Shown here: piece by piece, positions 34,247 to 53,580 of the stretch
How positions within the stretch are numbered: position 1 is the first letter of the stretch
Layout: the number at the start of each line of letters is the position of its first letter
DNA from: Modicisalibacter tunisiensis
GTDB taxonomy: Bacteria > Pseudomonadota > Gammaproteobacteria > Pseudomonadales > Halomonadaceae
Reading direction: 5' to 3'
Assembly: GCF_020148005.1 (NCBI RefSeq)
Contig: NZ_JAGXFD010000001.1
Location: 555,012-614,104, forward strand
Length of the DNA: 59,093 bases
The notes under the pieces: model-generated
The model's database searches: none
What the model saw: the letters and a program-made list of their open reading frames with translations, nothing else
Told to the model about the DNA's origin: nothing
Translations under genes and position numbers: made by a program

Positions 34247-34366
34247 ATGAAGGAGAAGTGGCTTCATGCCCACGAAGTCGGTACCTCCTTCGGCAGAAAT
34301 AGCCGCGAGGTGAGCCCCAGGGCCCGCAACGGCAATACCAGCGAGGGCAGCAAGTCCGATGCGTGA
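34247..34366 (+). CDS. Possible 39-residue leader peptide before brxA
   Basis: ATG 34247 has GGAG well placed upstream, and the frame runs 39 codons (MKEKWLHAHEVGTSFGRNSR...) to a TGA that overlaps the brxA ATG by 8 bp in another frame. brxA itself has no strong ribosome site, so its translation may depend on reading this frame. The product resembles nothing I know; it is basic and hydrophilic. Confidence 0.35.
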   Translation: MKEKWLHAHEVGTSFGRNSREVSPRARNGNTSEGSKSDA

Positions 34367-35183: not shown

Positions 35184-35721
35184 GCGCCTGATCGACTCCT
35201 ACGGCCGCTTTATCGCCCTGCCCTGGCGCGACGACGCCGCGGCGGCCCAACGTGTCGTCTTCTGCGTCTACCCGGAAACCGAGGAACTTCGCCTGCGTGC
35301 CAACCTGGGGGAATTCGAGCTGGTGACACGCCAGAACGACCATGAGTGGTTGGCGTTCGACCTGACCGATACCTTCGCCCTGTGGATGGCTGAGCAGAAA
35401 TATGCCAAAGGGTACTTCAGGTCTCCGGCCAAGCTGGCTACGGTGATCCATCGCTATCTGGACTGGCTGGAGGCCCGCTTCACCGCGGAGCTATCCGCCC
35501 AGGGTGTTGGCGACAACCACGTCGTCACCTTGTATGGCGTCGGCAGCCTGTTTGGCCTGCTGAAGGTCAAGGAGGTGGTGGACCGCCTGGCCCCCCGCGT
35601 CAGCGGTCGCTTGGCCGTGCTGTTCCCGGGCAGCTTCGAGAACAACAACTACCGGCTGCTGGACGGCTATGACGGCTGGAACTACCTGGCCACGCCCATC
35701 ACCGCCGATGGGGCCCGCTGA
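35170..35721 (+). CDS. brxB: BREX protein BrxB (DUF1788)
   Basis: 183-residue DUF1788 protein of unknown biochemical role, needed for BREX defence in E. coli. Family features: EELRLRANLGEFELVT near residue 36, LYGVGSLFGLLKVKEVVDRL, and the near-terminal LAVLFPGSFENNNYRLLDG. The start overlaps brxA, so translation is coupled. Confidence 0.9.
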   Translation: MSKVKRLIDSYGRFIALPWRDDAAAAQRVVFCVYPETEELRLRANLGEFELVTRQNDHEWLAFDLTDTFALWMAEQKYAKGYFRSPAKLATVIHRYLDWLEARFTAELSAQGVGDNHVVTLYGVGSLFGLLKVKEVVDRLAPRVSGRLAVLFPGSFENNNYRLLDGYDGWNYLATPITADGAR

Positions 35722-35771
35722 ACCAGCACCACGCAAGAATTCATACTTCGCTACCGCAGGGGAAAGGACGC

Positions 35772-38700
35772 ATGCGCAACCGCGATATCTACGCCAAGGA
35801 CCCATCCCAGCAGCGCCTGGTCAACGAGGGCGTCGCCTACGTCAACGACGACAGAAGCGACCGGGCCCAGAAGGTACTGCGCTACGAGCTGGAGACCTTC
35901 GTCTGCGACGGCCAGTACGCCAGAGGCATGCAGGATATTCTGGATACCTACCTGCGCAATCTGAGCGGCGGTGCCTCCCAGCAGCCCGGCGTGTGGATCA
36001 GCGGCTTCTTCGGTTCGGGCAAATCCCACATGGCTAAGATGCTGCGCAACCTGTGGGAAGACGTCACCCTCGACGATGGTGCCACCGCCCGCGGCCTCGT
36101 CCACCTGCCCCAGGAGATCCAGGACCTGTTCAAGGAACTCTCCACCCAGGGCAAACGCCATGGTGGCCTGTTCGCCGCCTCCGGCACTTTGGGAGCGAGT
36201 TCACGCGACAAGAGCGTGCGCCTGGCATTGCTCTCGGTGATCTTCCGCGCGGCCGGCTTGCCGCAGCAGTACCCTGTCGCCCGCTTCGTGATGTGGCTGC
36301 GTGACGAGGGCATCCTTGAGCAGGTACGCGACGACGTCGTCAGCCGCGGTGACGACTGGCAGGAGGAGCTCGATAACTTCTACGTCGCCGAGTCACTGCA
36401 CGAGGCCCTGGTCCAGGCCAAGCCGAGGATATTTAGCAGCGTGGAGTCCTGCGCCGAGACCCTCAGCCACCTCTACCCTCACGTCAACGACATCAGCAGC
36501 GACGAGATGCTCAAGGCCATCCGCCAGGCGCTGAGCCAGGACGGCAAGATGCCGCTCACCCTGGTGGTACTGGATGAGGTGCAGCAGTACATCGGCACCG
36601 ACGGGCAGCGTTCCATCGACGTGCAGGAAGCGGTGGAAGCCTGCTGCAAGGAGATCGGCAGCCGCCTGATGTTCATCGGCACCGGCCAGACCGCCATTAC
36701 CGGCACCAGCAACCTGGCACGCCTGCAGGGCCGTTTCACCACTCGCATCGAGCTCTCTGATGCCGACGTCGACGCCGTTATCCGCCAGGTGGTGCTGGCC
36801 AAGAAGCCCGAGGCCAAGGCGCCGGTCGCCGAGGTGATGGAGGGCAATCTCGGCGAGATCTCCCGCCACCTGGCCGAGACTTCCATTGCTCACCGCCAGG
36901 AGGATACCCGCCACTTCGCTCAGGACTACCCCATCCTGCCGGTGCGTCGTCGCTTCTGGGACGCCGCCCTGCGTGTGCTCGACCAGACCGGTACCGACAG
37001 CCAGCTGCGCAACCAGCTCAGCATGATCCACAAGGCGATCCAGACCAACCTGGACGCCCCGCTGGGCAACATCATCCCCGGCGACTACCTCTACTTTGAC
37101 GCCACCGACAAGCTGTTGCAGTTCCGTGCACTGCCGCGCAAGCTCCACGACGCCACCCAGCAGTGGCGTAACGGCAGTGAAGACGAGCAGCTGATGGCGC
37201 GAGCCTGTGCCGTGGTGTTCCTGATCAACAAGGTCGCCAGCACCAACACCGAGCTCGGCCTGCATCCTACCCTGGCCAACATCGCCGACCTGCTGGTCGA
37301 TGACCTCAAGGCCGGCAGCAGCTCGCTGCGCAGTCGCCTGCCGGATCTTCTCGATGAGTGCGAGTTCATCATCAAGGTGGGCGACGAGTATCGGATCCAG
37401 ACCGAGGAGAGCGCCGCCTGGAACGACGCCTTCCTCGCCCACAAGAGCACCCTGGGCAACGCCACCCACCAGATCGAGACCGAGCGCGACGACCTGATCC
37501 GCCAGCACTTCGCCAAGCAGGTCGGTAACCTCACGGTGAACCACGGCGAGTCCAAGGTGCCGCGCCCGCTCTCGCCGGTCTTCGACATGACGCTGCCCAA
37601 GGATGCCGCCGAGAGGCTCTATGTCTGGGTGCGCAACGGCTGGTCGGATGACATCAGCCAGGTGCGTGCCGATGCCCGCCAGGCGGGGTCGGAATCCCCC
37701 ACCCTGTTCGTGTTCATCCCCAAGCGCTCCGCTGACGAGCTACGCAACCAGCTGATCGAGTTCAAGGCCGCCAGCGCGACCCTGGAGACCCGCGGTACGC
37801 CCGGCACCCCTGAAGGGGAAGAGGCGCGAGCCGCCATGCAGACTACCCGCGATGCCGCCCAGCGGCGCATTCGCGAACTGCTCGACGAGGCCTTCAACGG
37901 CGCCCAGGTATTCCAAGGCGGCGGTAACGAGATCGTCGGTGCCACCCTGCGTGAGGCCATTCAGGAAGGCGCCGAGAACGCCCTGGCCCGCCTGCATCCC
38001 AAGTTCCATCAGGCCGACCACGCCGGTTGGGAGAAGGTCTATTCCAAGGCCAAGCAGGGCGCTCCCGATGCCCTCAAGGCCGTGGGCTACGATGGCGAGC
38101 CCCAGAGTCATCCGGTATGCAAGGCTGTTCTGAGTTTCCTCGGCGGCGGCAAGAAGGGTAGCGAGATACGCGACCATTTCGAGCACGGTGATTACGGCTG
38201 GTCCCAGGACGCCATCGATGGCGCCGTGCAGGTGCTACTGGTCGCCGGACAGATCCGCACCACCGATGGCACCTCTCCCCAGGAGTTGGACCGTCGCGCC
38301 ATCGGCAAGACCGAGTTCCGCGTGGAGGCCACGACCATCTCCGCGGGGGAGCGCATCAAGATCCGCAAGGTGATGCAGAAGCTCGGCGTGCAGGCCAAGT
38401 CTGGCGAGGAGTCCGCCAAGGCGCCGGATTTCGCCGACAAGCTCCGAACCCTGGCCGAACAGGCAGGTGGCGAACCGCCGGCTCCGGAGGCTCCCCGTCT
38501 GGATGCCCTGGAAGCCGTGCGTACCAGCAGCGGTAACGACCAGCTCAAGGCCATCGTCAGCAACCAGGGCGAGCTGCTTACCGCCATCGATGAGTGGAAG
38601 GCCACCGCCGAGAAGATCCAGCAGCGCCGACCCGCCTGGGGCACACTCAAGCGCCTGGCCGACCACGCCAGGAGCCTGCCCGACGCCGAGCCGTTGCTGG

Positions 38701-39206
38701 CCCAGGTCAGCCAGATCCGCGAGCACCGCTCGCTGCTGGACGACCCGGATCCCGTCCAGCCCCTGCTGGCCAACCTCACCCAGCAGTTCCGTGACACCTT
38801 CAACGACCTGCAGCAGCGCTATGCGGACGAGCATGCCGCCGGAATGCAGCGCCTGGAGGCGGATGACAACTGGCAGCAGCTCTCGCCGGACCAACGCCAC
38901 GACCTGCTCGCCGCCAAGCGCCTGACGGCTCACGACGCCCCCGAGATCACCCTCGGCGGCACCGACCAGGTCCTGGAAACCCTGAACCATGTGCGTCCCG
39001 ACGCCCTGGCCGACCGCATCGCCGCGCTATCCAGTCGCTTTGATGAGGTGCTGGTCAAGGCAGCCGAGGAGATGGAGCCCGAGGTGCAGTTCGTCAACCT
39101 GCCGCGCCGCACCCTCAAGAGTGAGGCCGATATCGATGCCTGGCTGGAGGACGTTCGTCGTGAGCTGCTCGAGGCCCTGCAGGACGGGCCGGTGATCACC
39201 CAGTAA
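35772..39206 (+). CDS. brxC: BREX ATPase BrxC
   Basis: Very large AAA-type P-loop ATPase of BREX type 1, 1144 residues (family about 1200). Walker A FGSGKSHMAK lies near residue 80 and Walker B LVVLDEVQQYIG near residue 264. A long helical region follows, with a coiled-coil-like segment near residues 660-700 (RAAMQTTRDAAQRRIRELLDE). BrxC, BrxB and PglZ are thought to form a complex with PglX. 50 bp after brxB, same strand. No frameshift or internal stop, so it appears intact. Confidence 0.95.
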   Translation: MRNRDIYAKDPSQQRLVNEGVAYVNDDRSDRAQKVLRYELETFVCDGQYARGMQDILDTYLRNLSGGASQQPGVWISGFFGSGKSHMAKMLRNLWEDVTLDDGATARGLVHLPQEIQDLFKELSTQGKRHGGLFAASGTLGASSRDKSVRLALLSVIFRAAGLPQQYPVARFVMWLRDEGILEQVRDDVVSRGDDWQEELDNFYVAESLHEALVQAKPRIFSSVESCAETLSHLYPHVNDISSDEMLKAIRQALSQDGKMPLTLVVLDEVQQYIGTDGQRSIDVQEAVEACCKEIGSRLMFIGTGQTAITGTSNLARLQGRFTTRIELSDADVDAVIRQVVLAKKPEAKAPVAEVMEGNLGEISRHLAETSIAHRQEDTRHFAQDYPILPVRRRFWDAALRVLDQTGTDSQLRNQLSMIHKAIQTNLDAPLGNIIPGDYLYFDATDKLLQFRALPRKLHDATQQWRNGSEDEQLMARACAVVFLINKVASTNTELGLHPTLANIADLLVDDLKAGSSSLRSRLPDLLDECEFIIKVGDEYRIQTEESAAWNDAFLAHKSTLGNATHQIETERDDLIRQHFAKQVGNLTVNHGESKVPRPLSPVFDMTLPKDAAERLYVWVRNGWSDDISQVRADARQAGSESPTLFVFIPKRSADELRNQLIEFKAASATLETRGTPGTPEGEEARAAMQTTRDAAQRRIRELLDEAFNGAQVFQGGGNEIVGATLREAIQEGAENALARLHPKFHQADHAGWEKVYSKAKQGAPDALKAVGYDGEPQSHPVCKAVLSFLGGGKKGSEIRDHFEHGDYGWSQDAIDGAVQVLLVAGQIRTTDGTSPQELDRRAIGKTEFRVEATTISAGERIKIRKVMQKLGVQAKSGEESAKAPDFADKLRTLAEQAGGEPPAPEAPRLDALEAVRTSSGNDQLKAIVSNQGELLTAIDEWKATAEKIQQRRPAWGTLKRLADHARSLPDAEPLLAQVSQIREHRSLLDDPDPVQPLLANLTQQFRDTFNDLQQRYADEHAAGMQRLEADDNWQQLSPDQRHDLLAAKRLTAHDAPEITLGGTDQVLETLNHVRPDALADRIAALSSRFDEVLVKAAEEMEPEVQFVNLPRRTLKSEADIDAWLEDVRRELLEALQDGPVITQ

Positions 39207-40989: not shown

Positions 40990-41085
40990 TGCACACGGCT
41001 GAGCATTAACCGCCGATCAATGCGCACAGCAATGCTCACATGCAATAGAACACGCATTCGCAGGGATACCGTGGAAGGAAGCAAC

Positions 41086-42288
41086 ATGGATAGCAGCATG
41101 CAGCCACTCGACAAGACACTCCGCAACCAACTCGACCGCACCGTGCGCAAGGCGCGACCTGTCGCCGAACAGGCCGCCGAGGCTGCCCTGGAGCAGCTCG
41201 GCGTCGGCGAGGAGACCCCGCCCAGCTACCTGAGTGACAACCAGCGCGCCCTGCGCCGCCGGCTTCGCGCCCATGCCCGCAGCCTGGGCGACCCCCTCAA
41301 GGAGGGCGCCCAGGCGGTCACCCGGCTGATCGGCGAGATCGCCTACGAGCACTGGCACCGCATGCTGTTCGCCCGCTTCCTGGCCGAGAACGAGCTGTTG
41401 ATGTACGACGGCGTAGCCGTCACTCTGGAGGAGTGCGAGGAGCTGGCGGAAGAGGAAGCTGAACAAGGCGAGCGCACCAGCGGCTGGGCCCTGGCCGCTC
41501 GGCTGGCCAGCACCATGCTGCCCCAGGTGTTCCGCGTCGACAGCCCGGTGTTCGAGCTCACCCTGGCCGCCGAGTATCAGCGCGAACTGGAAGAACTGCT
41601 GGCCGGCCTGCCGGTGCAGGTCTTCCACGCCAGCGACAGCCTGGGCTGGGTGTACCAGTTCTGGCAGACCGACAACAAGGAGCGCATCAACCGCTCCGAG
41701 GTGAAAATCGGCGCCGACGAGCTGCCCGCCGTCACCCAGCTGTTCACCGAGCCCTACATGGTCAGCTTCCTACTGGATAACAGCCTGGGCGCCTGGTGGG
41801 CCGCTCGTCGCCTGTCGGAAGCCGATCTGGCCAGCGCCGAGAGCGAGCAGGCGCTGCGTGACAAGGCCAGCCTGCCCGGCGTGCCGCTGGAGTACCTGCG
41901 CTTCGTCAAGGACGAGGAGACCGGCCAATGGACGCCTGCCGCCGGCACCTTCGATGCCTGGCCGGAAAGCCTTGCCGAACTCAAGACCCTGGACCCCTGC
42001 TGCGGCAGCGGCCACTTCCTGGTCGCCGCCCTGCTGATGCTGGTGCCTATGCGCATGGAGCTGGAGGGCTTGAACGCCAGCGACGCCGTGGATGCGGTGC
42101 TGCGCGACAATCTGCACGGCCTGGAGATCGACCAGCGCTGCGTGGAGCTGGCTGCTTTCGCCCTGGCCCTCACCGCTTGGCGGTACCCCGGCACTGGTGG
42201 CTATCGCAAGTTGCCGGAGCTGCACCTAGCTTGCTCCGGCCTTCCAATAAATGCGAAAAAAAGCGAATGGCTAGCACTAGCTGAGGAT
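41086..42288 (+). pseudogene. pglX: pglX, 5' part (interrupted by IS30-type element)
   Basis: N-terminal 401 codons of the BREX adenine-specific DNA methyltransferase PglX, which marks host DNA and is required for both protection and defence. It has a helical N-terminal domain (LNRTVRKARP-like start, ARFLAENELLMYDG) and the SAM-binding motif I LDPCCGSGHFLVAALL near residue 303. ATG 41086 follows GGAAGGAAG. At 42289 an insertion sequence breaks the frame; read-through into it gives a stop six codons later. The last about 60 bases before the insertion are already AT-rich. Confidence 0.92.
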
Positions 42289-43390
42289 CCTGGATTCATA
42301 GAATAACCGCAGCACTTTGGACCGCACGGTGGAGGGAGGAGGGCCAGCGCCGGTACCCTCCCTGCTTTACCGACCAAAGTGAAGCAGAGCATGGGATACC
42401 GACAGCTGACCCAGACCCAACGATACCAGATCCACGCCCGCTATGACTTGGGCATCAGCCAGCGCCAGATCGGCAGGGAACTGAGCATCCACAGCAGCAC
42501 AATCAGCCGTGAGCTGCGCCGCAACGCCACTGCCAGCGGCTACGACCCCGAACAGGCCCAGGCCCGTAGTGATCACCGGCGGCGCACCGCCTGGAAGTGG
42601 ACGAAGCGCTTGCCCAGCATGATCACCGCCGTTGCCGACCGGCTGCGTGAGGAGTGGAGCCCGGAGCAGATCAGCGGCTTCATGGCGCCCTTGGTCGGCA
42701 TAGGCGTGAGTCACCAATGGATCTACTCCTTGATCTGGGATGACAAGGCCCGTGGTGGTGATCTCTGGCAATACCTCCGTCAGCCCAAGCGTCGCAGCAA
42801 GCACCGTGCCCAGGCCAAGAGCGCAGGGCTCGGCAAGATCCCCAACCGCGTGGGAATCGAACACCGTCCAACGGCGGTCAATGACCGGCGCTTCATCGGC
42901 CACTGGGAGGGCGACACCGTGATCCAGGGCCACAAACAATCGGGCTTAGTCACGCTGGTTGAGCGCCGCAGCGGCTATCTGCTGGCGGCGCGGCTGCCGA
43001 AAATTTCAGCGAAGCTGACGAAAGCCGCCATGATCCGCCTGCTGAAGCCTCGCCGGGGCGCTGTCCAGACCATCACGCTGGACAATGGCTCGGAATTCGC
43101 CGACCACGAAGCCGTGGCCAAGGCAGTGACAGCAGCGACGTACTTCTGTGATGCCTACTGCTCCGGTCAGCGGGGGACCAATGAGAACACGAATGGCCTG
43201 ATACGGCAGTACTTCCCCAAGGGAACGGACTTCCGTCAGGTCACCGATGCCGAGCTGCGCAGGGTGGTCAGAAAACTGAATGACCGTCCACGAAAACGGC
43301 TCGGCTATCTGACACCGGCACAGGTGTTCCTGGGAGAATACTCAGGAGCCCTGGATACCGCAGGTGCTGCGCTTATTGATTGAATTCAGG
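42289..43390 (+). mobile_element. IS30-family insertion sequence in pglX
   Basis: 1102 bp. The ends are imperfect inverted repeats: left CCTGGATTCATAGAATAACC then GCAGCAC, right (reverse complement) CCTGAATTCAATCAATAAGC then GCAGCAC. It is flanked by the direct repeat GAT (42286-42288 and 43391-43393), extendable to GGAT depending on where the end is drawn. One transposase gene fills it. Confidence 0.93.
42391..43383 (+). CDS. IS30-family transposase
   Basis: 330-residue DDE transposase. N-terminal helix-turn-helix (YRQLTQTQRYQIHARYDLG, QRQIGRELSIHSSTISRELR), catalytic residues in GHWEGDTVIQG, TLDNGSEF and the Glu in GTNENTNGLIRQYFPKGTDF. ATG 42391 is chosen; an in-frame GTG lies four codons upstream. 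Intact, so the element may still move. Confidence 0.95.
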   Translation: MGYRQLTQTQRYQIHARYDLGISQRQIGRELSIHSSTISRELRRNATASGYDPEQAQARSDHRRRTAWKWTKRLPSMITAVADRLREEWSPEQISGFMAPLVGIGVSHQWIYSLIWDDKARGGDLWQYLRQPKRRSKHRAQAKSAGLGKIPNRVGIEHRPTAVNDRRFIGHWEGDTVIQGHKQSGLVTLVERRSGYLLAARLPKISAKLTKAAMIRLLKPRRGAVQTITLDNGSEFADHEAVAKAVTAATYFCDAYCSGQRGTNENTNGLIRQYFPKGTDFRQVTDAELRRVVRKLNDRPRKRLGYLTPAQVFLGEYSGALDTAGAALID

Positions 43391-44594
43391 GATAATACTA
43401 ATTTACGTATAGCACTAGACGATCTCTATTCACAATTTAAAGAGGCTCCTGTTCTAGGTAGTCTGATCCAGCCTGAAAAAAGCTTGAGTAGTGAATCGTT
43501 GTTTGAAATAAAATGGAAAGATATTGAACCGCTCTTATCAAGAGCTCTCGCAGAAGAAGAAACCGAGACCACAGAAGTAAGGGTTATTGCAAAAGGTATT
43601 GCTAAAGCTGCTTCCATCTTATTCAATCAATACCATTTCTTACCAACCAACGTCCCTTATTTGTCGCAAGGAAAACAATCGCCTATATTATCCAGTTTCT
43701 GCAAAAACAGCTTCTACGACGCTCGCCACGACTTGGCAAATGTTTTCCTTGAGCGGATGCATGATCTTTTAAGAGACAACGGTGTTGCTCAAGTAGTAAT
43801 GCCTCAAAACTGGCTTTATCTAAAGCGTTATCAAAACCATAGAATTGGCTTATTGAGAAAATGGAAATGGAACCTCACTGCACGACTTGGAGAGGGAGGT
43901 TTTGATAGCGCATCTGCTGCAGGAGCATTCGTAGCACTCTACACTTTTACAAATAATGAATCTTCAGGAAGCAATATAATAAAGTTCATTGACTGTTCCA
44001 CGATATCAGGAGCCGAATATAAAGCGAGAGGACTAAAAAATCTCGAAATAAAAAAGATCGAACAAAAAACGCAATTCTCAAATCCCGGCGCAGCAGTAAC
44101 CTTTGAAAACCAAGGTGACATTCCATTACTTTCTAAGTATTGCAGCGCTCTATCCGGAATTTCCACTGGGGAGCTAAACCGATTTACTAAGAAACATTGG
44201 GAGGTTTTTCGATTTGGGGGGGAATGGGAGCTTTCTCAGACAAGCTCGATTCAAACTTGTCATTTCACAGGGCTTACGAATGCTGTTCTTTGGCAAAAAG
44301 GAGCGGGTGAGCTCTACGATTTAGTACAAAGCGTTAAGCACCTTAATCATGCTGCCCAAAACTGGCAGAGAGGCAAACCCAACTGGGGGAAGCCAGGCAT
44401 AAGCATAAGCAAAATGCGCGAACTAAAAGCAAGTATATACTCTGAGAGGATATACGACGAAAACTGCTGTGCAATTATCCCAGCCGATCCTAGCATAATG
44501 CCCGCGCTTTGGGAGTTCTGCAGAAGCCCTGAGTACAATCATGAGGTTAGAAAAATAAACCAGAGCATCTTGGTTCAAACCAAATATATGATAA
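43391..44594 (+). pseudogene. pglX: pglX, middle part (target-recognition region)
   Basis: Continues the pglX frame exactly: GAT repeat, then codons for NTNLRIALDDLYSQF. It contains methyltransferase motif IV in the PglX form NVPY (residues 487-490 of the restored protein) followed by LSQGKQ, and MPQNWLYLKRYQNHR downstream. This 1.2 kb is AT-rich (for example 22 G/C in the 60 bases from 43501) whereas the 5' part is GC-rich (45 of 60 from 41221). The segment ends at the IS3 element after codons for QTKYMI. Confidence 0.9.
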
Positions 44595-44656
44595 TGAATC
44601 GCCCCGGGTTTCGTAGACACCTCCAGACCTTATACTGAAGGCACCAAGGAGGTCCC

Positions 44657-44935
44657 ATGAGCCGCCAGCGATATACCGAAGAATTCAAGATCGAAGCCGT
44701 CAAGCAGGTGACGGAGCGCGGTCATCCCGTCACGGAGGTGGCCGCCCGGCTGGGGGTATCCGGCTACAGCCTCTATCAGTGGATGAAGCGCTACGCCAAG
44801 CCGGCGGAGCAGCGTCAGCAGGGCGCGGACCTCCAGGCGGAGAACCGGCGCTTGAAGGCCGAGCTGAAGCGTGTATCAGAAGAGCGGGATATATTAAAAA
44901 AGGCCACCGCGTACTTCGCCAGAGAGTCCGACTGA
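44657..44935 (+). CDS. IS3 transposase OrfA
   Basis: 92 residues: a helix-turn-helix (RYTEEFKIEAVKQVTERG, VTEVAARLGVSGYSLYQWMK) followed by a leucine-zipper-like coiled coil (ENRRLKAELKRVSEERDILKK). Preceded by AAGGAGG. It binds the element ends and, alone, regulates transposition. Confidence 0.95.
   Translation: MSRQRYTEEFKIEAVKQVTERGHPVTEVAARLGVSGYSLYQWMKRYAKPAEQRQQGADLQAENRRLKAELKRVSEERDILKKATAYFARESD
44896..44902 (+). promoter_or_regulatory. Programmed -1 frameshift site
   Basis: The heptamer A_AAA_AAG lies exactly in phase with orfA codons (TTA AAA AAG) inside the orfA/orfB overlap. Slippage by one base joins OrfA to OrfB, as known for IS3-family elements. Confidence 0.88.
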
Positions 44936-45807
44936 GGTACGCGTTTATCCATGACCATGCGGACCAATATCCGGTGCGGCGCCTGTGCCGCATCATGGCA
45001 GTGCACCCCAGCGGCTACTATGCCTGGCGCCGTAATGCCCTGTCTGAACGAGCGCAAGACGACCAGCGTCTGCTGGGGTTGATCAAGCATGCCTGGCTCG
45101 AGAGCGGCGGCGTTTACGGCTATCGCAAGATTCACCAGGATCTAAGAGAGGCCGGCGAAACCTGCGGCAAGCATCGCGTAGCCAGGCTGATGCGCCGGGA
45201 AGGGTTGCGCTCCCAAACCGGTTATCGGCCACGCCCTGGCGGCTATGGCGGCAAGCCGGCCGTGGTGACGCCCAATCGTCTGGATCGCCGATTCGACGTG
45301 ACAGCACCCAATGTCGCCTGGGTCACCGACATCACCTACATCCGCACCCACGAAGGCTGGCTCTACCTGTCGGTGGTCATCGACTTGTTCTCGCGTCAGG
45401 TCGTGGGTTGGTCGATGAAACCACGCATGACCACCGATCTGGCCCTGGATGCCTTGCTGGCAGCCGTCTGGCGACGGAAGCCCCAAGGGGTTGTCATGGT
45501 GCATTCGGACCAGGGCAGCCAGTTCAGCAGTGCGGACTGGCAGAGCTTTCTGAAGGCCAATCACCTGGAGGGCAGCATGAGCCGTCGAGGAAACTGCCAT
45601 GACAACGCCGTTGCCGAAAGCTTCTTCCAGCTGCTCAAGCGAGAACGCATCAAGCGCCGGATCTATTCGACTCGGGAAGCCGCCAGGAGCGATGTGTTCG
45701 ACTATATCGAGATGTTCTACAACCCAAGGCGCCGTCACAGCACGAGCGATAACTTGTCACCCGTCGAGTACGAACGGCGTTATACCCAGAGCCTGACGGG
45801 TGTCTAG
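44897..45807 (+). CDS. IS3 transposase OrfB (expressed as OrfAB)
   Basis: Catalytic part, in the -1 frame relative to orfA. It shows the HTH_21 region (SGGVYGYRKIHQDLREAG) and an rve integrase core with D in AWVTDITYI, D in MVHSDQGSQF and E in DNAVAESFFQLLKRE. No independent start codon with a ribosome site is obvious, so the fusion product made by frameshifting is expected. Intact. Confidence 0.93.
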
Positions 45808-45825
45808 AATACCTGGGGCGATTCA

Positions 45826-46877
45826 TAAATATTCCTTTTGATATCGATAAATGGGAAAAAGCTGCTGCTGAAAAATACCCTCATGGCCTCCCTAAGCCCT
45901 ACTCTGATGATCCCACACAATGGATCTTCCACGGCCACCCCTGCGGCTCGGTAACCTGGGACGAGGAAGCCAAATGGACCGCCCATGGCCCGCTGCGCAC
46001 CGACGATACCGTGCTGCAGGTCGCCATGGCCCGGCTGTTGGGCTACCGCTGGCCGGCGGAGCGGGACCCGGAGATGGAGCTGGCCGAGGAGCAGCGCGAG
46101 TGGGTCAAGCGCTGCGAGGCGCTACTCGGCCATGCAGATCGCGACGGCATCGTCTGCCTGCCTGCTGTGCGCGGCGAGCGGCGCGCCGTGGATCGCCTGG
46201 AGGCGCTGCTGGCCGACGCCTACGGCGACCAGTGGTCCGCCACCACCCGCGGCAAGCTGCTGGAGAGCGTCGATCACGCCGGCAAGGACCTGGAGAGCTG
46301 GCTGCGCGACAAGTTCTTCGCTCAGCACTGCAAGCTGTTCCAGAACCGCCCCTTCATCTGGCACATCTGGGACGGCCTCAAGGACGGCTTCTCGGCGCTG
46401 GTGAACTACCACAAGCTCGACTTCAAGGCCCTGGAAACCCTCACCTACACCTACCTGGGCGACTGGATCACCCAGCAGAAGAAGCAGATCAGCGAGGGTA
46501 TCGACGGCGCCGAAGCCCGCCTCGCCGCCGCCGAGGCGCTGCAGAAGAGCCTGGAGCTGATTCTCGAAGGCGAAGAGCCCTACGATATCTTCGTACGCTG
46601 GAAGCCCCTGGAAGAGCAGCCCATCGGCTGGCACCCCGACCTCAACGACGGCGTCCGCCTCAACATCCGCCCCTTCCTGTCCGTCCCCGACGTCAAGAAG
46701 AAGGGGGCCGGCGTGCTCGTCCACAAGCCCAACATCCACTGGAAGAAGGATCGGGGCAAGGACGTCGAATCCGCTCCCTGGTACCAGCTCGGCCCCCAGC
46801 TGGGCGGTGCCAAGGGCGACCGGATCAACGACTACCACCTCACGCTGGCGGCGAAGAAGGCAGCGAGAAAACCATAA
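45826..46877 (+). pseudogene. pglX: pglX, 3' part
   Basis: After the TAA repeat the frame continues as NIPFDIDKWEKAAAEKYP, with PSDDPTQWIFHGHP-like region and the C-terminal PglX domain (FIWHIWDGLKDGFSALVNYH, DGVRLNIRPF, GVLVHKPNIHW) and a normal stop. The first 70 or so bases are still AT-rich before GC-rich sequence resumes. Joining 41086-42288, 43394-44594 and 45829-46877 gives 3453 bases, 1151 codons including the stop and no internal stop, so only the insertions break the gene. Confidence 0.92.
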
Positions 46878-46908: not shown

Positions 46909-48015
46909 ATGGCCAAGATCACCGATGCTGTGGACCCCGGCAACGCCGGGGGCAGCGTGCTGATCCCCGAGATTCCTACGATGCCCAACCGCCCCGTCAC
47001 CTTCCAATGTGACAAGTGCGGCGAGGTCTTCGCGGACCGCGAGGCACGGCGACAGCACGTCTTTGACCAGCACCCTTTCAAGCGCCCACAGTTGCTGGTG
47101 GGCAGTCGCATGGTCAAGGAGCGGGGCGAAGTGGTGGCCAGTCCGTTCCCTCCAGCGGACTGGGTGGTCCAGCAGGCAGAGCGGATCGAGATCGACCACC
47201 AGGAGGTGGCCAGTCGGCAGGCATGCCGCCAACTCAGCAAGATCACCTCGGGTTTTCACGAGGTTACCCTGACCAGCGCCGACTACTCGGTGAACTACCA
47301 TATCGAATTCGATATCCCCAAGGAGGCGCAACTAGCCACGGTGGAGCGGGCCTTCAACAACCTGATCGTCAACCAGCCGTTGGAAAGTGACCGTATCGCC
47401 CAGTTCATCACCGTAGCCAAAGAGGAGGACGGTGCCAGGTACTACCTGGAAGGCGTCAGCGACTTCCTCTACGGCGTGCTGGCCAAGGATCAGCGTGGCG
47501 GCACGAGTCTGAACCGAGATGACTACACGACCAAGTTCCACGCCGCCCGCGAGGCACTCCGCTTCCTCAACCGCCCGCTGGCCAACCTGATAAAGGCGCT
47601 GGTCAACTTCAACCACAACGCCTTCAGCGAAGCTGAAATACTCGCCCCCGGTGGTCAGGTCGCGATTGCCTGCCGGATGTTGAACGGCCTACGCTGCGGC
47701 AAACACTGCCCACCCCCTAAGATCAGGGCCGCTTCCGGACACAACCTGCCGGTGGACACCCTCACTGCCGAAATCATGCGCTTCTGCAGCCTGCCGTTGA
47801 CAGAACAGTGGGAGCGACTGCCTCAATTGGCGCACCTGGTCAGCAAGCGCCTGACCACCGACCATGATCGGGTCAAGATCCAGGCACTGGCCATGAATAC
47901 CTGCTGGGAGGCCGGCGATCATGAGCAGGCAGCCGGCTGGGCCAAAAAGCTGCGCCACAGCCCTCTATTCGAGGCCCTGGCCACCCGTATCATCGAGGAC
48001 GTAGAGCATGAGTGA
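46909..48015 (+). CDS. C2H2 zinc-finger protein, BREX accessory trio gene 1
   Basis: 368 residues, family not recognised. A classical C-x2-C-x12-H-x4-H zinc finger (C34, C37, H50, H55; CDKCGEVFADREARRQHV) lies near the N-terminus; such fingers are uncommon in bacteria. The centre has an alternating hydrophobic stretch (VTLTSADYSVNYHIEFDIPK). The C-terminal half is helical, with HEQAAGWAKKLRHSP suggestive of helical repeats, and includes an odd CGKHCPPP. 31 bases after pglX, and its stop region overlaps the next start by 8 bp. Co-transcription with the two following genes is very likely. Confidence 0.75.
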   Translation: MAKITDAVDPGNAGGSVLIPEIPTMPNRPVTFQCDKCGEVFADREARRQHVFDQHPFKRPQLLVGSRMVKERGEVVASPFPPADWVVQQAERIEIDHQEVASRQACRQLSKITSGFHEVTLTSADYSVNYHIEFDIPKEAQLATVERAFNNLIVNQPLESDRIAQFITVAKEEDGARYYLEGVSDFLYGVLAKDQRGGTSLNRDDYTTKFHAAREALRFLNRPLANLIKALVNFNHNAFSEAEILAPGGQVAIACRMLNGLRCGKHCPPPKIRAASGHNLPVDTLTAEIMRFCSLPLTEQWERLPQLAHLVSKRLTTDHDRVKIQALAMNTCWEAGDHEQAAGWAKKLRHSPLFEALATRIIEDVEHE

Positions 48016-49315
48016 CTCCCCAAGGGACGATAAAAAATTCGTCCCGATCTTCAACAAAACCACAGGTGCCGCTTCACAAGGCGAGGCCCAAGCTGGCAAA
48101 GCCCTTAACACCAATAAGCGGTCAGATACTAAGGCTCCGACACCTGCTGAGAACCCAGCGGTGTCTCGGGCACATCAAGATATTCGGCAAGGAGGGCAAA
48201 GTCACGCTAGCGACTCTGAGAGGAGTAGCGAGTCAGGTACCAGGTCCACCCAGGAACTGGATAAGAAGTCGGATACTTCCACTCAGTCGAAGAGCAGCAA
48301 GAACATTACATGCGTCTCCGATATTATCAAGCGTTTCTATGCCTCCTCGGGTACACCGAAGAGGATCACCGAGCCGGCGCTGAGAAAGCTGGAGGAGCGC
48401 ACGCTCTCAGCCGCCCAGCGTTCGGAGCTTCTCGACCTCGCCCAGCGTGAAGACGCCGCGCTTGCCCGTACCGTCAACCTGGCCTTCGCCGCTTTTGAGA
48501 TCTACAGCAACCACACCATCAGGGATCTGCTGCTGAAGTTCGCCATCGACGCTGGCCGGGAAACTTTCGATCTCGCCATGGAACCTGTGGATGACTGGCT
48601 CCCGCTCAGCGACGAGGACCGCAAGCCCGCCAAGGAGCTCTTCAGGCGCTATGTCAGCCGAGTGCAGCAGGTGGAAGGCAATAAGAAGGTGCCGGCCAAG
48701 GAGAAGAAGGAGCGTCTGACCAAGCTACGCAACCTGCTGTTCCTGAGCCTGATCTGGCAGGCCAACCAGGGGTGGGCCGGAGAAGAAGAGATCCTGCGCT
48801 TCCTGAGAGCAGAGGGCGTTTTCACCACTAGCACACACTACCCTACCCAGGCCAGGGAGGCGCTACTGAAGTCGGCCTATACCCAGGCGAGTGCCGACTT
48901 CTCCCCGCTGGGCTGGCTGTCGCGCCAGATCGAGAATACCAAGATCCGCCAGGCCAGCGACCTGGAACGACTGGAGAGAGACGTCAAGCGCCTCACCGCC
49001 GAGCGTGACCAGATACACCAGGAACATACAAGCCTACGTCACGAGCATGACGCCCTGATGGCCAGGGTCGAAGAGCTTGAGCAGGCGCTACACCAAGAGA
49101 AGGAGAGCGCGCAGACCACCAGCGTACATCTGGAAGATGACAAGCACCGACTGCGCGCCCAGGTCACCAAGGCGCTGAAGAACGAGGTACCACGCCTGGA
49201 GGAAGCGCTGATTGCACTTAGGCTTGACCCTCCCAAGCTGCACATCGTTTCCCACTACGTTGAAGATGCTCTCGACAATATTAAGAAGGTTCTACATAGA
49301 ACAGAAGGAGAGTGA
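48008..49315 (+). CDS. Coiled-coil protein, BREX accessory trio gene 2
   Basis: 435 residues, not recognised. Residues 1-100 are polar, rich in Ser, Thr, Lys and Gln, and probably disordered. Residues 110-310 are helical (LSAAQRSELLDLAQREDAAL; AFEIYSNHTIRDLLLKFAID). Residues 318-395 form a long coiled coil (RLERDVKRLTAERDQIHQEH, DALMARVEELEQALHQEKES). The last 50 residues contain VPRLEEALIALRLDPPKLHI. Overlaps gene 1 by 8 bp and is one base from gene 3. A scaffold or client-adaptor for the Hsp70-like protein is a guess from position only. Confidence 0.75.
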   Translation: MSDSPRDDKKFVPIFNKTTGAASQGEAQAGKALNTNKRSDTKAPTPAENPAVSRAHQDIRQGGQSHASDSERSSESGTRSTQELDKKSDTSTQSKSSKNITCVSDIIKRFYASSGTPKRITEPALRKLEERTLSAAQRSELLDLAQREDAALARTVNLAFAAFEIYSNHTIRDLLLKFAIDAGRETFDLAMEPVDDWLPLSDEDRKPAKELFRRYVSRVQQVEGNKKVPAKEKKERLTKLRNLLFLSLIWQANQGWAGEEEILRFLRAEGVFTTSTHYPTQAREALLKSAYTQASADFSPLGWLSRQIENTKIRQASDLERLERDVKRLTAERDQIHQEHTSLRHEHDALMARVEELEQALHQEKESAQTTSVHLEDDKHRLRAQVTKALKNEVPRLEEALIALRLDPPKLHIVSHYVEDALDNIKKVLHRTEGE

Positions 49316-49316
49316 T

Positions 49317-51191
49317 ATGGAAGTCTTCGGCTTCGACTTCGGCACCACCAACAGCCTGATTACCCAAGTAGTCGGCGGTAAAGCAATCGTATTGGGCCAA
49401 GGAACAGACAATGAACCCTATCCCTCGGTAGTTTGCTACGAGGGCGATAGTGTTATCTGCGGCAGCGAGGCCAAGAAGCGCCTCATGACCCACGAGATTG
49501 GCGTGATCGGCAACGTGGTGCGCTCACCCAAGATGCTCCTGAACCGGGAATATGTTCACGTCGACGGCATCCCGCGGCGTCCCCGCGATATGGTGGCGGA
49601 TGTCGTCAAGCACGTGGTGTCGAGCACCGAGAAAGACCCGCGCTACCAGCATGGCCAGGGTATCGGCCGGGCCGTCGTCACGATTCCCGTCGATATGGAC
49701 GGCAGGCAGCGCCGCGAGCTTCGCGAGGCCTTCCATCAGGCCGGCCTGGTTATCGAGCAGTTCGTCCATGAGCCCATGGCAGCACTCTACGGCTACCTGC
49801 GCACCAAGGAAGACCCGGAAAGCGAGATTCGCCGCCTGGAAGGGCAATACCTACTGGTAGTCGACTGGGGCGGCGGCACCCTCGACCTGACCTTGTGCCA
49901 GGTGCAGAACGGCATGCTCGTGCAAGTTCGTAATGATGGTACTGACGACCTGGGTGGCGATGTGATGGATGAGGCGATTCGCCGTGAGGTCGAGAAGCGC
50001 GCCGTCGAAGCGGCAGGGCTCGGCGCCGAGGAGGCAGACGTCAACTCGGATGCCAGGCTTCGACTGCTGGCTCGTGCCGAAGAGGCTAAGATCAAACTCT
50101 CGACTCGTGAGCAAGAACCAATATTCATTCATGACTATTTCCGTAATGAGCATCGAGATCCAAATATCGATGTTCTGCTGACTCGTAGCGAGCTTGAGGA
50201 GATTATCGGCCAGAAGGTCCGTCAGGGAATTAGGCGCGCTAAGACCCTGATCGAGGCTGCCGACCTGACCACCTCGGATATCTCGCTCTGCCTGGCTACC
50301 GGCGGCATCGTCAACATGCCGGCGGTCAAGTCCGGCCTCTATGAGATGTTTGGTGCCACGCGGGTGGAGATCTCCGATCGTGGCTTCTCCATCATCTCGG
50401 AGGGAGCCGCATGGATCGCCCATGACCGTGCCCGCCTGCGCCTGGCCAAGAACATCGAGGTCCATGTGGCACGTAACGCCTACTTCCCGGTCATTGGTGC
50501 AGGCTACGAGATGCCGACTGCCGGGGATGTCAGCGAGGCTGAGAGGTTGACGCTCTATTGCACCGATCCGCGAGACGGCGTCGGCAAGGTCAGCCTGCTC
50601 GCCCCCACCCGCCATGGGCGCCAGGTGCAGCCAAACGACTCTCGCCAGCCCCTGGCGTCACTAAACGTCAAGGTTGAGCCTACGATGGCCAAGCTCTTCG
50701 AGCGGATCATGCTCGACCTGGAGGTAGACGATAACCTGATCCTACACGCCACGGCGAAGTCGGCCATCAAGGGTGACAGCGACTACCGGCCCATTCACGA
50801 GCTGGAATTCGGCCTGGACATCATGCAGGGCATCACAGGCCGTTCGATGAATGGACCCCAAGAACAGACCGGTGGCGCCGAGGGAGCATCAAAAAAGCCT
50901 GAGGGTCGCAGCAGTCAGAGCGATCAGCCGGTAGGCGGTATCCTGCTGCGACCCAATGTAGCTAGGCAGGAGGACATCTCACTGGTACCCGGCGAGGCAT
51001 TGATGCAGAAGGAGATGGGCCGGCCAGGCGGGCACTTCCATCGAGCCAATGAACTTACCGACCTGCAACGGGATGAAAGGGCCTCCTACGCGCCCTGCAG
51101 TTACTGCGGGAGGCGCGCTGGGGATCCGAAATGCCGGTGTCTATCCGAACAGCGCGGAAAAGGCCTTGGCAGCTTCCGGGTGAGCCGCTGA
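49317..51191 (+). CDS. Hsp70-like ATPase with C-terminal cysteine cluster, trio gene 3
   Basis: 624 residues. The Hsp70 nucleotide-binding domain is clear: phosphate-1 motif GFDFGTTNSLI (residues 5-15), phosphate-2 VVDWGGGTLDL with D183, and the adenosine motif ATGGIVNMP from 327. Then a region like the DnaK substrate-binding beta domain (LDLEVDDNLILHATAKSA). The helical lid is missing; after about residue 545 comes a linker rich in Gly, Ser and Gln, then CSYC (594-597) and CRC (606-608), a likely zinc site. No DnaJ or GrpE gene is adjacent. ATG 49317 follows AAGGAGAG. Not a housekeeping DnaK. Confidence 0.88.
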   Translation: MEVFGFDFGTTNSLITQVVGGKAIVLGQGTDNEPYPSVVCYEGDSVICGSEAKKRLMTHEIGVIGNVVRSPKMLLNREYVHVDGIPRRPRDMVADVVKHVVSSTEKDPRYQHGQGIGRAVVTIPVDMDGRQRRELREAFHQAGLVIEQFVHEPMAALYGYLRTKEDPESEIRRLEGQYLLVVDWGGGTLDLTLCQVQNGMLVQVRNDGTDDLGGDVMDEAIRREVEKRAVEAAGLGAEEADVNSDARLRLLARAEEAKIKLSTREQEPIFIHDYFRNEHRDPNIDVLLTRSELEEIIGQKVRQGIRRAKTLIEAADLTTSDISLCLATGGIVNMPAVKSGLYEMFGATRVEISDRGFSIISEGAAWIAHDRARLRLAKNIEVHVARNAYFPVIGAGYEMPTAGDVSEAERLTLYCTDPRDGVGKVSLLAPTRHGRQVQPNDSRQPLASLNVKVEPTMAKLFERIMLDLEVDDNLILHATAKSAIKGDSDYRPIHELEFGLDIMQGITGRSMNGPQEQTGGAEGASKKPEGRSSQSDQPVGGILLRPNVARQEDISLVPGEALMQKEMGRPGGHFHRANELTDLQRDERASYAPCSYCGRRAGDPKCRCLSEQRGKGLGSFRVSR

Positions 51192-51246: not shown

Positions 51247-53580
51247 ATGGCTATCATGGAACAGCTCGTTAGAGCCATCCGCAGCGCCGCCGCCTACAAC
51301 CCAGATGTACAGGCGGCTCCTACCTGCATCTTGTGGCCGGACCGCGAGCGGCTATGGGAGCCGGTGATCACGCAGATCCAGGCCGAGCTGCCGGAGCTTC
51401 TGGTGCTGGGCGACTACGCCCCCGAGCAGCGCCGCGGCCCGGCGATCTGGCTACGCTGTGCCATCGCCGGCACCGTGGAAGGCATCAAGCTGGACGATGA
51501 GACACCTCCTATCCTTTACCTGCCCAGCGTAGGACGCCAGGATCTACGTGCCGTCAGCGAGTGCCCGGAAGCCCTGAAGCCCCTGGCAGAGCTGCAGTAC
51601 CGCGGCACGCTCTGGTCCCAGGTCAACGCCAAGGACTGGACGCCGCGGGCGTTCCTCTCCTCACAGCAGGGTGGGCTGGGCCTGGCCGTGGCCGGTGACG
51701 CTGCCACACGCCAGGCACTGCTGGCCGCCCTGCCTCGATTGCTCCGAGAGCCGCTCGCGGACTTGCAAGACCGTCACCTCGACGCCGAGGCCTTCAATAC
51801 CCTGCTCACCGGCGGCGACCCGGTGCGCGACCTGCTGGACTGGCTCAACCAGCCCGAAGCAATGAAAGCTAGCCGGCCTGACCATGAGTGGCAGGCCTTC
51901 TGTCAGGTATGTAACTCCCGCTACGGCATAAACCCTGAGAAACAGAGCGTGCTGGATGCCCTGGAGCGCTTCACCCAGCGCCAGGGCAACTGGAAAACGG
52001 TCTGGGCGCGATTTACGGAGGCCCCGAACCGCTATCCGGAGCTCATCGAACACCTGGCTCAGCTTACGCCACCGGATCTCGGCCTGTTTCCCGAGCCTGA
52101 CGACATGGCTGTATGGCCGCAGCTTAACCGTCAGGAGGAGGAGCGGCTCTATCACGACCTGTGCGCACTCGGCAGCCTGCCGGCCCATGAAGCCCGCGAA
52201 CGACTGGAAACACTGGAGAGCGAACATGGTGTGCGCCGCGATTGGGTGTGGGCGGAGCTGGGCGAAAGCCCGCTGACCATGGCCCTGGCACCGCTTGCCG
52301 AGCTGGCCAGGGTGACGCGACGCAGCCTGGCGGGTGGGCACGCCGAGGATATGCGCCAGGCGTATCTCAGCGAAGGCTGGAAGGCCGATGATGCCCTGCT
52401 CAGGGCGCTGGAGGAGATCACCGGCCAGCGCGAGCAGGAGGCAGTCTTTACCGCGGCCCGTACGGTGTATCTGCGCTGGGCCGACGAGGCGGCCCGCCAC
52501 CTCCAGAAGGTGTGGCAACCGGGTGTCGATGGCCTGAAGCGCGGCGAGGCATCCCCCCATACTCAGCTAGGCGAGTGCGTGCTGTTCGTGGATGGCCTGC
52601 GCCTGGACTGTGGCAAGCGCCTGACTCAGCGCCTTGTCGCCCAGGGGCTGGATGTCACCGAGCACAGTACCTGGGCGGCGCTGCCCAGCGTGACCGGCAC
52701 CGGCAAGTACGCGGTGGCGCCGATCCTCGGCAGCGATGGCATCCACGAGGAGCCTGACGGCTACCAGTTCACGCCCATCACCCGACATCTGTTCCAGAAG
52801 CTGCTGCGCGAGAATGGCTGGCAGGTGCTGGAGCGCCGCCAGGTGGAACAACTGCACAAGGAGACCCTGGATACCTCCAAGCCGGCCTGGTGCGAGTTCG
52901 GCGATATCGATCACGCTGGTCATGAGCGCGGCTGGAAGCTGGCCCAGCATGTGGATGACATGCTTGCCGAGGTTGCAGAGCGCATCCAAGCGCTGTTGGC
53001 CCAGGGCTGGTCGCAGGTCCGCGTGGTGACCGATCACGGCTGGCTGCTTTTGCCAGGAGAGCTACCCAAGACCGAGCTGCCGGCCAGCCTAGTGGAGACC
53101 AAGTGGGGGCGCTGTGCCGCGCTCAAGCCGGGAGCCCATACAGACGCAGCACGCTTCCCCTGGTACTGGAACGAACAGGTACACTTCGCCCTGGCGGAGA
53201 GCATTCACTGCTTCAAGGCGGGTGAGACCTACACCCATGGCGGTCTCAGCCTGCAGGAGTGTCTGACGCCGGAGCTGGTGGTCACCGGCAGCGCCGGCCC
53301 CAAGCCCTCGGTGCTGATCGATGGCCTGGTGTGGAAGGGACTGCGCTGTACCCTGGTGGTGGAAAGCGACAGCGAGGGGCTGACCCTGGATGTGCGTCGC
53401 CATGCCGGCGACCCGACCAGCAGCCTGGTGCTCTCGCCCAAGCCGTTCAAGGCCGGCGGCAAGGCCTCGGTGGTGGTCGAAGATGACGACCTAGAAGGCG
53501 ATACCGCCTACGCCGTGGTGCTGGATGACAAGGGCCAGGTGATCGCTCAGCGCTCCGCCACCATCGGCGGCAGTGCATAG
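51247..53580 (+). CDS. pglZ: BREX protein PglZ
   Basis: 777-residue BREX type 1 PglZ, alkaline-phosphatase superfamily. Metal-site candidates: D449 in LFVDGLRLDCG, D596 and H597 in VVTDHGWLLLP, H664 in YTHGGLSLQE. The known Streptomyces and type 1 PglZ proteins have this core and act as hydrolases; PglZ is essential for BREX. 55 bases after the trio, GAGGAG about 12 bases upstream of the ATG; another in-frame ATG lies three codons later. No disruption seen. Confidence 0.93.
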   Translation: MAIMEQLVRAIRSAAAYNPDVQAAPTCILWPDRERLWEPVITQIQAELPELLVLGDYAPEQRRGPAIWLRCAIAGTVEGIKLDDETPPILYLPSVGRQDLRAVSECPEALKPLAELQYRGTLWSQVNAKDWTPRAFLSSQQGGLGLAVAGDAATRQALLAALPRLLREPLADLQDRHLDAEAFNTLLTGGDPVRDLLDWLNQPEAMKASRPDHEWQAFCQVCNSRYGINPEKQSVLDALERFTQRQGNWKTVWARFTEAPNRYPELIEHLAQLTPPDLGLFPEPDDMAVWPQLNRQEEERLYHDLCALGSLPAHEARERLETLESEHGVRRDWVWAELGESPLTMALAPLAELARVTRRSLAGGHAEDMRQAYLSEGWKADDALLRALEEITGQREQEAVFTAARTVYLRWADEAARHLQKVWQPGVDGLKRGEASPHTQLGECVLFVDGLRLDCGKRLTQRLVAQGLDVTEHSTWAALPSVTGTGKYAVAPILGSDGIHEEPDGYQFTPITRHLFQKLLRENGWQVLERRQVEQLHKETLDTSKPAWCEFGDIDHAGHERGWKLAQHVDDMLAEVAERIQALLAQGWSQVRVVTDHGWLLLPGELPKTELPASLVETKWGRCAALKPGAHTDAARFPWYWNEQVHFALAESIHCFKAGETYTHGGLSLQECLTPELVVTGSAGPKPSVLIDGLVWKGLRCTLVVESDSEGLTLDVRRHAGDPTSSLVLSPKPFKAGGKASVVVEDDDLEGDTAYAVVLDDKGQVIAQRSATIGGSA

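What the first reader, a model, noticed from the sequence alone, without database searches (positions are those of the whole stretch)
46909..51191. Zinc-finger / coiled-coil / Hsp70-like trio embedded in a BREX locus
Three genes with 8-bp and 1-bp junctions sit between pglX and pglZ. None is a canonical BREX gene. They encode a C2H2 finger protein (C34, C37, H50, H55), a protein with disordered N-terminus and long coiled coil, and an Hsp70-type ATPase. Both outer proteins carry cysteine clusters. The tight packing argues for one complex. An Hsp70-like motor might remodel PglX/PglZ/BrxC or sense phage proteins; this is inference. I know of no described defence system with this composition, though I could not search.
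Basis: partly seen in the sequence, partly recalled or inferred. Interest (0 to 1): 0.9.

Follow-up and report, generated by a model that had tools for sequence, protein, structure and literature searches.

The report
Portable Hsp70–zinc-finger defence-island gene trio
Three neighbouring genes, one encoding a specialised relative of the Hsp70 chaperone, travel together as a fixed unit among the anti-virus gene islands of many bacterial groups, inside and outside BREX, and may be an undescribed defence system built around a chaperone motor.

Summary
Between pglX and pglZ of a type-1 BREX locus lie three open genes: a C2H2-finger protein (Z), a coiled-coil protein (C) and an Hsp70 (H), with an 8-bp overlap and a 1-bp gap. 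I read 83 loci: the window, a Halomonas-family relative, two plasmids and 79 of the 80 best genome hits (one duplicate). 81 of 83 keep the order Z-C-H, 79 uninterrupted. Z, C and H co-diverge. The trio is not a BREX component: 68 of 83 loci show no BREX gene in the DNA held, and the BREX label changes 12 times on the H tree. Other neighbours are restriction, Hma, McrBC, GmrSD and dynamin-like genes. H keeps the ATPase residues and, by profile, the substrate-binding beta-domain, ends in a four-cysteine motif, and differs where DnaJ is recalled to act on DnaK. Best reading: a self-contained candidate anti-phage module, an Hsp70 motor with two private partners that remodels nucleic-acid-bound phage proteins. 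Module and setting are shown; defence is inferred; the mechanism is conjecture. PADLOC-DB, Pfam, NCBIfam and ten searches of an open-access library gave no matching system.

The parts
46909..48015 (+). [not shown]
   Evidence: C34 C37 H50 H55 P60 Y179 D320 K323 invariant in 75 aligned; AF2 mean pLDDT 90.8; of 344 PDB sequences matched at E<=10, the 60 best shown lie at profile positions 13-66 and are nearly all named zinc-finger proteins; no PDB fold match at E<=0.001; TPR_4 in 2 of 75 members at E<=0.01
48008..49315 (+). C: coiled-coil protein, 435 aa; N-terminal beta-hairpin 12-25, low-confidence linker about 30-94, helical region 103-292, single helix 299-405, helix 411-434
   Evidence: AF2 mean pLDDT 79.4; no PDB fold match at E<=0.001; seed profile hits 64 of 84 locus files, iterated profile 84 of 84
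49317..51191 (+). H: Hsp70-like ATPase, 624 aa; nucleotide-binding domain, beta substrate-binding domain by profile, apparently no helical lid (not modelled), C-terminal four-cysteine motif
51247..53580 (+). pglZ type B (BREX-1), downstream neighbour, not part of the trio
   Evidence: NF033450, 907.1 bits
53609..55669 (+). brxL, neighbour
34359..39206 (+). brxA, brxB and brxC, neighbours
41020..46877 (+). pglX in three pieces, interrupted by two transposase-like genes (42379-43383 and 44779-45807)
   Evidence: (last piece only)

Best explanation
The trio is a self-contained, horizontally moving candidate anti-phage module that sits in defence islands and, in type-1 BREX loci, mostly takes the slot between pglX and pglZ. 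H is a working Hsp70 ATPase with a peptide-binding beta-domain and apparently no lid; the positions where J-proteins are recalled to touch DnaK are altered, so it likely answers to its own partners. Z, through its C2H2 finger and TPR-like surface, would bring H to a nucleic-acid-bound phage target, and C would be the scaffold and cofactor. ATP cycling would then pull apart or hold a phage nucleoprotein complex (replication or packaging), or act as a switch that commits the cell to a response. Shown: three conserved genes, fixed order, co-divergence, varied defence neighbours, kept ATPase residues. Inferred: defence function, one complex, mobility (from the scattered contexts). Conjecture: the target and the remodelling step.
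For: Order Z-C-H in 81 of 83 loci, uninterrupted in 79. Co-divergence in 79 loci: Z-H rho 0.843, C-H 0.827, Z-C 0.784, permutation maxima at most 0.179. Z and H searches of the same genome samples found the same genomes: 2 of 398 and 2 of 369, the window's own genome among them each time. Defence-panel genes in 53 of 83 trio loci against 1 of 60 control stretches; with six less certain families left out, 47 of 83 against 0 of 60, and 32 of the 68 loci without BREX. BREX label: 15 rows, 12 changes on a quick H tree, at least 10 forced by starred branches, shuffled mean 14.0, 37 of 500 shuffles as low. 22 of 78 assessable loci have no same-strand ORF within 100 bp on either side. ATPase residues D7, T10, T11 in 82 of 83 (one gap), K72, E152, D183, D190 in 83 of 83 (D183 is inside the pattern by which the loci were found). 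K378 in 83 of 83, where the aligned DnaK chain has the linker Asp. H151 in 83 of 83 and Q148 in 74 of 83, where the host's own DnaK reads RIINEP. That DnaK and a GrpE are separate genes elsewhere.
Against: No phage assay was run or found for any member. No nuclease, toxin or membrane effector was recognised in the three window proteins. 30 of 83 loci show no panel gene; their neighbours were mostly not annotated. The panel was built from trio neighbours, which inflates the contrast; the control stretches come from six genomes of one order, while the trio loci span ten named phyla, several known only from metagenome bins. C shows no detectable relation to GrpE, so a GrpE-like exchange role is not supported. 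No complex was modelled. H is split into two frames in L080 and L086 and Z in both plasmids, so not every copy looks working. Dynamin-PLD genes (8 loci) and the c7 gene (9 loci) suggest that further genes may be needed in some clades.
Confidence: 0.6

Rival explanations
1. The trio is a general helper of nuclease or methylase systems (BREX, type I/III restriction, Hma, McrBC): an Hsp70 that assembles, protects or recycles large restriction complexes, with no defence of its own.
For: The annotated neighbours are mostly large multi-subunit DNA-targeting systems; the trio lies inside the BREX operon in 11 of 11 loci where pglX and pglZ are both in view.
Against: No single partner system is constant; 22 of 78 loci have no close same-strand ORF on either side, and 30 of 83 show no panel gene in the DNA held.
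Confidence: 0.2
2. The trio is a BREX accessory that remodels PglX, PglZ or BrxC.
For: Repeated placement between pglX and pglZ.
Against: 68 of 83 loci have no BREX gene in the DNA held; H-PglZ rho 0.42 against Z-H 0.81 in the same 13 loci; two further BREX loci (L014, L065) have the trio after brxL; the same slot also holds GmrSD genes in L009, L011, L018 and L019, as expected of a slot for riders.
Confidence: 0.08
3. It is an RNA-targeting Hsp70 module like CnuD of CoCoNuTs: H binds RNA rather than remodelling protein.
For: CnuD is an Hsp70-like NBD/SBD protein predicted to bind RNA, and CoCoNuTs are described near BREX and type I restriction (PMC11090510, passages); McrB in 6 of 83 loci and McrC in 4.
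Against: CnuD motifs are reported as degenerate, whereas H keeps its ATPase residues. H is a separate gene without HEAT fusion. Pfam names no RNase in the window trio, nor among Z and C members at the limits used. No CnuD sequence was compared directly.
Confidence: 0.08
4. It is not defence but a stress or maintenance chaperone carried by genomic islands.
For: Integrases (7 loci) and recombinases (3 loci) occur near the trio; no phage assay exists here.
Against: Enrichment for defence genes. Rare on plasmids: 2 of 72,556 records, both Paenarthrobacter, hold an H relative over 80% of its length, and the same 2 are the only ones with a Z relative; phage records gave only matches over about half of H.
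Confidence: 0.04

Closest known systems
CoCoNuT CnuD / CnuCD (type III CoCoNuTs; PMC11090510, passages only)
   Same: Hsp70-like NBD/SBD protein in a defence setting, with coiled-coil proteins, described near BREX or restriction genes
   Different: CnuD goes with NxD McrB/McrC and HEAT repeats and has degenerate ATPase motifs. H keeps its ATPase residues, has its own Z and C genes and a four-cysteine tail, and McrBC was found in few loci. Sequences were not compared directly.
GTPase-centric conflict systems with Hsp70, GrpE and DnaJ (PMC7159879, passages only)
   Same: Hsp70 used inside a bacterial conflict system
   Different: Those centre on GTPases with GrpE or J-domain partners; no such domain was found in Z or C at the limits used.
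DnaK-DnaJ-GrpE (housekeeping Hsp70 machine)
   Same: Same nucleotide-binding fold and catalytic residues, beta substrate-binding domain by profile
   Different: Apparently no lid, added four-cysteine tail, Lys for the linker Asp, altered J-contact positions, different partners; 30% identity over residues 3-348 to the host DnaK-like gene.
BrxU / GmrSD in BREX loci (PMC8565348, title, start of abstract and a term search; PMC12839542, passages)
   Same: An extra defence gene carried with BREX
   Different: BrxU is a type IV restriction enzyme; the trio has no recognised nuclease.
bNACHT25 with host DnaJ (PMC12169576, passages)
   Same: Chaperone machinery tied to phage defence
   Different: It needs the host's DnaJ; the trio carries its own Hsp70.

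Membership tests
Hsp70 superfamily | NBD with catalytic residues D, T, K, E, D, D | tested here: met
   D7, T10, T11 in 82 of 83 (one gap); K72, E152, D183, D190 in 83 of 83; every H read carries LV[VF]DWGGG, one of the scan patterns, so D183 is partly selected; Pfam HSP70 2.6e-38
Hsp70 superfamily | beta substrate-binding domain | tested here: met
   Profile A7 aligns from position 2 to 520 on DnaK chain 2v7y_A, residues 3-497; sequence only, H was not modelled
Canonical DnaK | helical lid after the beta-domain | tested here: inconclusive
   Among the 60 best PDB matches shown, profile alignments end at or before position 554 of 598, and H then goes to a four-cysteine tail; H was not modelled
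Canonical DnaK | J-protein contact residues Arg167, Asn170 and linker Asp393 (identity and role recalled) | tested here: not met
   Q148 in 74 of 83 (Arg in 1), H151 in 83 of 83, K378 in 83 of 83; 65 of the 83 do not carry the scan pattern that includes Q148 and H151; host DnaK has RIINEP and VLLLD
BREX core component | occurs with BREX genes | tested here: not met
   15 of 83 loci have any BREX hit in the DNA held; flanks reach at most about 10 kb for scan loci, so distant BREX genes could be missed; how often BREX loci carry the trio was not tested
CoCoNuT | McrB GTPase and McrC partner | tested here: not met
   McrB panel hit in 6 and McrC in 4 of 83 loci; none in the window segment used (39001-59093)
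CoCoNuT | degenerate Hsp70 ATPase motifs | tested here: not met
   against the description seen
C2H2 zinc finger | CxxC and HxxxxH ligands | tested here: met
   Invariant in 75 aligned; Pfam hits are below cut-off in the window protein, and zf-C2H2 matches 18 of 75 members at E<=0.01; zinc binding itself untested
GrpE (for C) | profile similarity | tested here: not met
   hhalign probability 0.4 of 100 against the host's GrpE sequence
Anti-phage defence system | protects against phage | not testable with these tools
   needs an assay

The most novel reading that the evidence does not exclude
A new class of bacterial immunity in which a dedicated Hsp70 motor, steered by a C2H2/TPR-like adaptor and a coiled-coil cofactor, detects and dismantles phage nucleoprotein complexes without a nuclease: defence by disassembly.
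Probability: 0.25. Interest if true: 0.92.

Novelty: categorically new. Interest (0 to 1): 0.8.

Why it matters
If the trio protects against phage, it would add a chaperone motor with its own partners to the known kinds of bacterial immunity. Z and C matched no named whole-protein family in Pfam, NCBIfam or PADLOC. It would also give a name to a recurrent cargo of BREX and restriction islands found in ten named phyla, and it can be tested directly by moving three genes.

Tried and rejected

Limits. The genome scan found relatives by two patterns of H, and all 83 H proteins read carry one of them, LV[VF]DWGGG, so relatives without it are missed. 219 relatives were confirmed and the best 80 kept; 139 were not examined. 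L008 was dropped because it is the same record as L006. L003 and L004 are near-identical plasmids, and some Streptomyces and Arthrobacter rows are close kin; they stay in the counts, while one search left out L003 and L004. L079 starts inside the trio at a contig edge. L084 has no Z and a short C. H is in two frames in L080 and L086. C in distant members rests on a profile iterated on these same loci. Genes were called by a simple longest-ORF script, so some small neighbours are false. One search used the single window H at E<=1e-60. One listed paper with both Hsp70 and DefenseFinder (PMC12453123) was not opened; one search listed 30 of 366 papers and one search listed 12 of 1,122, none of the listed ones holding the Hsp70 term.

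Full report
What is there. The window holds a type-1 BREX locus: brxA, brxB, brxC, a PDC-M07A gene, pglX, pglZ (type B) and brxL. Between pglX and pglZ lie Z (46909-48015), C (48008-49315) and H (49317-51191), with an 8-bp overlap and a 1-bp gap. pglX is in three pieces: tblastn with an unbroken relative (G086) places its parts at about 41071-42282, 43400-44593 and 45822-46847, with two transposase-like genes between them. Inverted repeats at 44594-44621 and 45799-45826 flank the second. That these are IS30- and IS3-type elements is recalled from their look, not tested.

A fixed trio. A scan of one genome for each of 84,980 species with part of H gave 305 pattern matches, 219 confirmed relatives, best 80 kept. 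With the window, two plasmids (L003, L004) and G086 (L006), and L008 dropped as a duplicate of L006, 83 loci were read. 81 have Z, C and H in that order and 79 have them uninterrupted; the exceptions are L003 and L004 (Z split by a transposase gene), L079 (contig edge) and L084 (no Z, short C). The Z seed profile, without iteration, hits 82 of the 84 locus files. Genome samples searched for Z and for H gave the same genomes: 2 of 398 in the phylum and 2 of 369 in the class, the window's genome being one each time. So the trio is rare, and these few cases agree that its genes go together. In 79 loci the pairwise distances of Z, C and H correlate at 0.78-0.84 against permutation maxima of 0.18 or less. 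Shared ancestry of the hosts contributes to such a correlation; the PglZ comparison below is the internal control.

Not a BREX part. 15 of 83 loci show any of four BREX genes in the DNA held. On a quick H tree the label needs 12 changes, at least 10 forced by starred branches; 37 of 500 shuffles were as low, so there is little clustering. In the 13 loci with PglZ, H distance tracks Z (0.81) better than PglZ (0.42). Yet in 11 of 11 loci with both pglX and pglZ in view the trio lies between them, in some beside a GmrSD gene; in two more (L014, L065) it follows brxL. This reads as a preferred slot for riders. A BREX survey of January 2026 (PMC12839542, term searches and passages) has no occurrence of hsp70, chaperone, C2H2, TPR or dnaK in its main text; its supplements were not seen.

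Defence setting. Representatives of neighbour clusters match HmaB and HmaC, SNF2/DrmD helicases, type I and III restriction subunits, GmrSD, McrBC, a dynamin-like GTPase with a PLD-like tail, PDC-S37/Hhe and PDC-M16A. With profiles from these clusters, 53 of 83 trio loci and 1 of 60 control stretches of 20 kb carry at least one. Leaving out six less certain families (dynamin among them) the counts are 47 of 83 and 0 of 60, and 32 of the 68 loci without BREX still count. The panel was drawn from the neighbours and the controls come from six genomes of one order, so the contrast is overstated. The dynamin gene, 8 loci and only 2 changes on the tree, lies directly before Z in six of them. An unnamed gene of about 450 aa (cluster c7, 9 loci) follows H in actinobacterial loci.

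Anatomy. H keeps the ATPase residues and, by profile, the beta substrate-binding domain. After it comes a variable linker and a C-terminal CxxC...CxC (C594/C597 in 81 of 83, C606 in 62, C608 in 74). Lys378 stands where the aligned DnaK chain has the linker Asp, and Gln148 and His151 stand for Arg and Asn next to the catalytic Glu, while the host's own DnaK keeps RIINEP and VLLLD. Because the loci were found by patterns in H, conservation of D183 and W184 is partly selected; Q148 and H151 are outside the pattern carried by 65 of the 83. That these are J-protein contact sites is recalled, not tested. The host's dnaK-like and grpE genes lie about 4 kb before the window. Z has an invariant C2H2 finger and a confidently predicted helical, TPR-like body with no PDB match at E<=0.001. 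C has a short N-terminal hairpin, a linker, a helical region and a 107-residue helix, and is not detectably GrpE-like.

Mechanism. Most likely H is an ATP-driven remodeller run by Z and C instead of DnaJ and GrpE, aimed by the zinc-binding elements of Z and H. No nuclease was recognised in the window's three proteins, so either disassembly of a phage complex is the effector step or a neighbour supplies it. I put 0.6 on an autonomous defence module and about 0.25 on defence by disassembly.

Novelty. Nothing in PADLOC-DB or NCBIfam names the three proteins beyond Hsp70 and chance coiled-coil matches, and Pfam gives only Hsp70, C2H2 and weak coiled-coil or TPR matches. Ten searches of the open-access library turned up no description; their listings were capped and subscription papers are mostly not held. 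The nearest described relatives are CnuD of CoCoNuTs and the Hsp70-bearing GTPase systems (passages), which differ in partners, ATPase motifs or architecture as described there.

Noticed in passing
window 41020-46877: pglX is broken into three pieces by two transposase-like genes, one flanked by 28-nt inverted repeats; the middle piece is about 35% identical to the G086 PglX while the ends are about 90%.
   Followed up: partly
window 39221-40989: A PDC-M07A AAA ATPase gene and a small gene with a weak PIN match sit between brxC and pglX, a second rider slot.
   Followed up: partly
L014, L015, L019, L024, L025, L029, L031, L033: A dynamin-like GTPase of about 970 aa with a PLD-like MIT_C tail occurs in 8 trio loci, directly before Z in six of them; its tail also matches a BrxL model.
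   Followed up: partly
L003 15769-17109 and kin (cluster c7, 9 loci): An unnamed gene of about 450 aa follows H in actinobacterial loci; the representative has no family match above chance.
   Followed up: partly
[not shown]
   Followed up: no
window 48041-48082 (C residues 12-25): A short predicted beta-hairpin (pLDDT about 85 around residues 11-20) before the linker in C, with a TG-like motif in many members; it could be a binding peptide.
   Followed up: no
L047, L048, L050, L056 (cluster c18): A gene of about 235 aa with no family match in the representative follows the trio in four Streptomyces loci.
   Followed up: no
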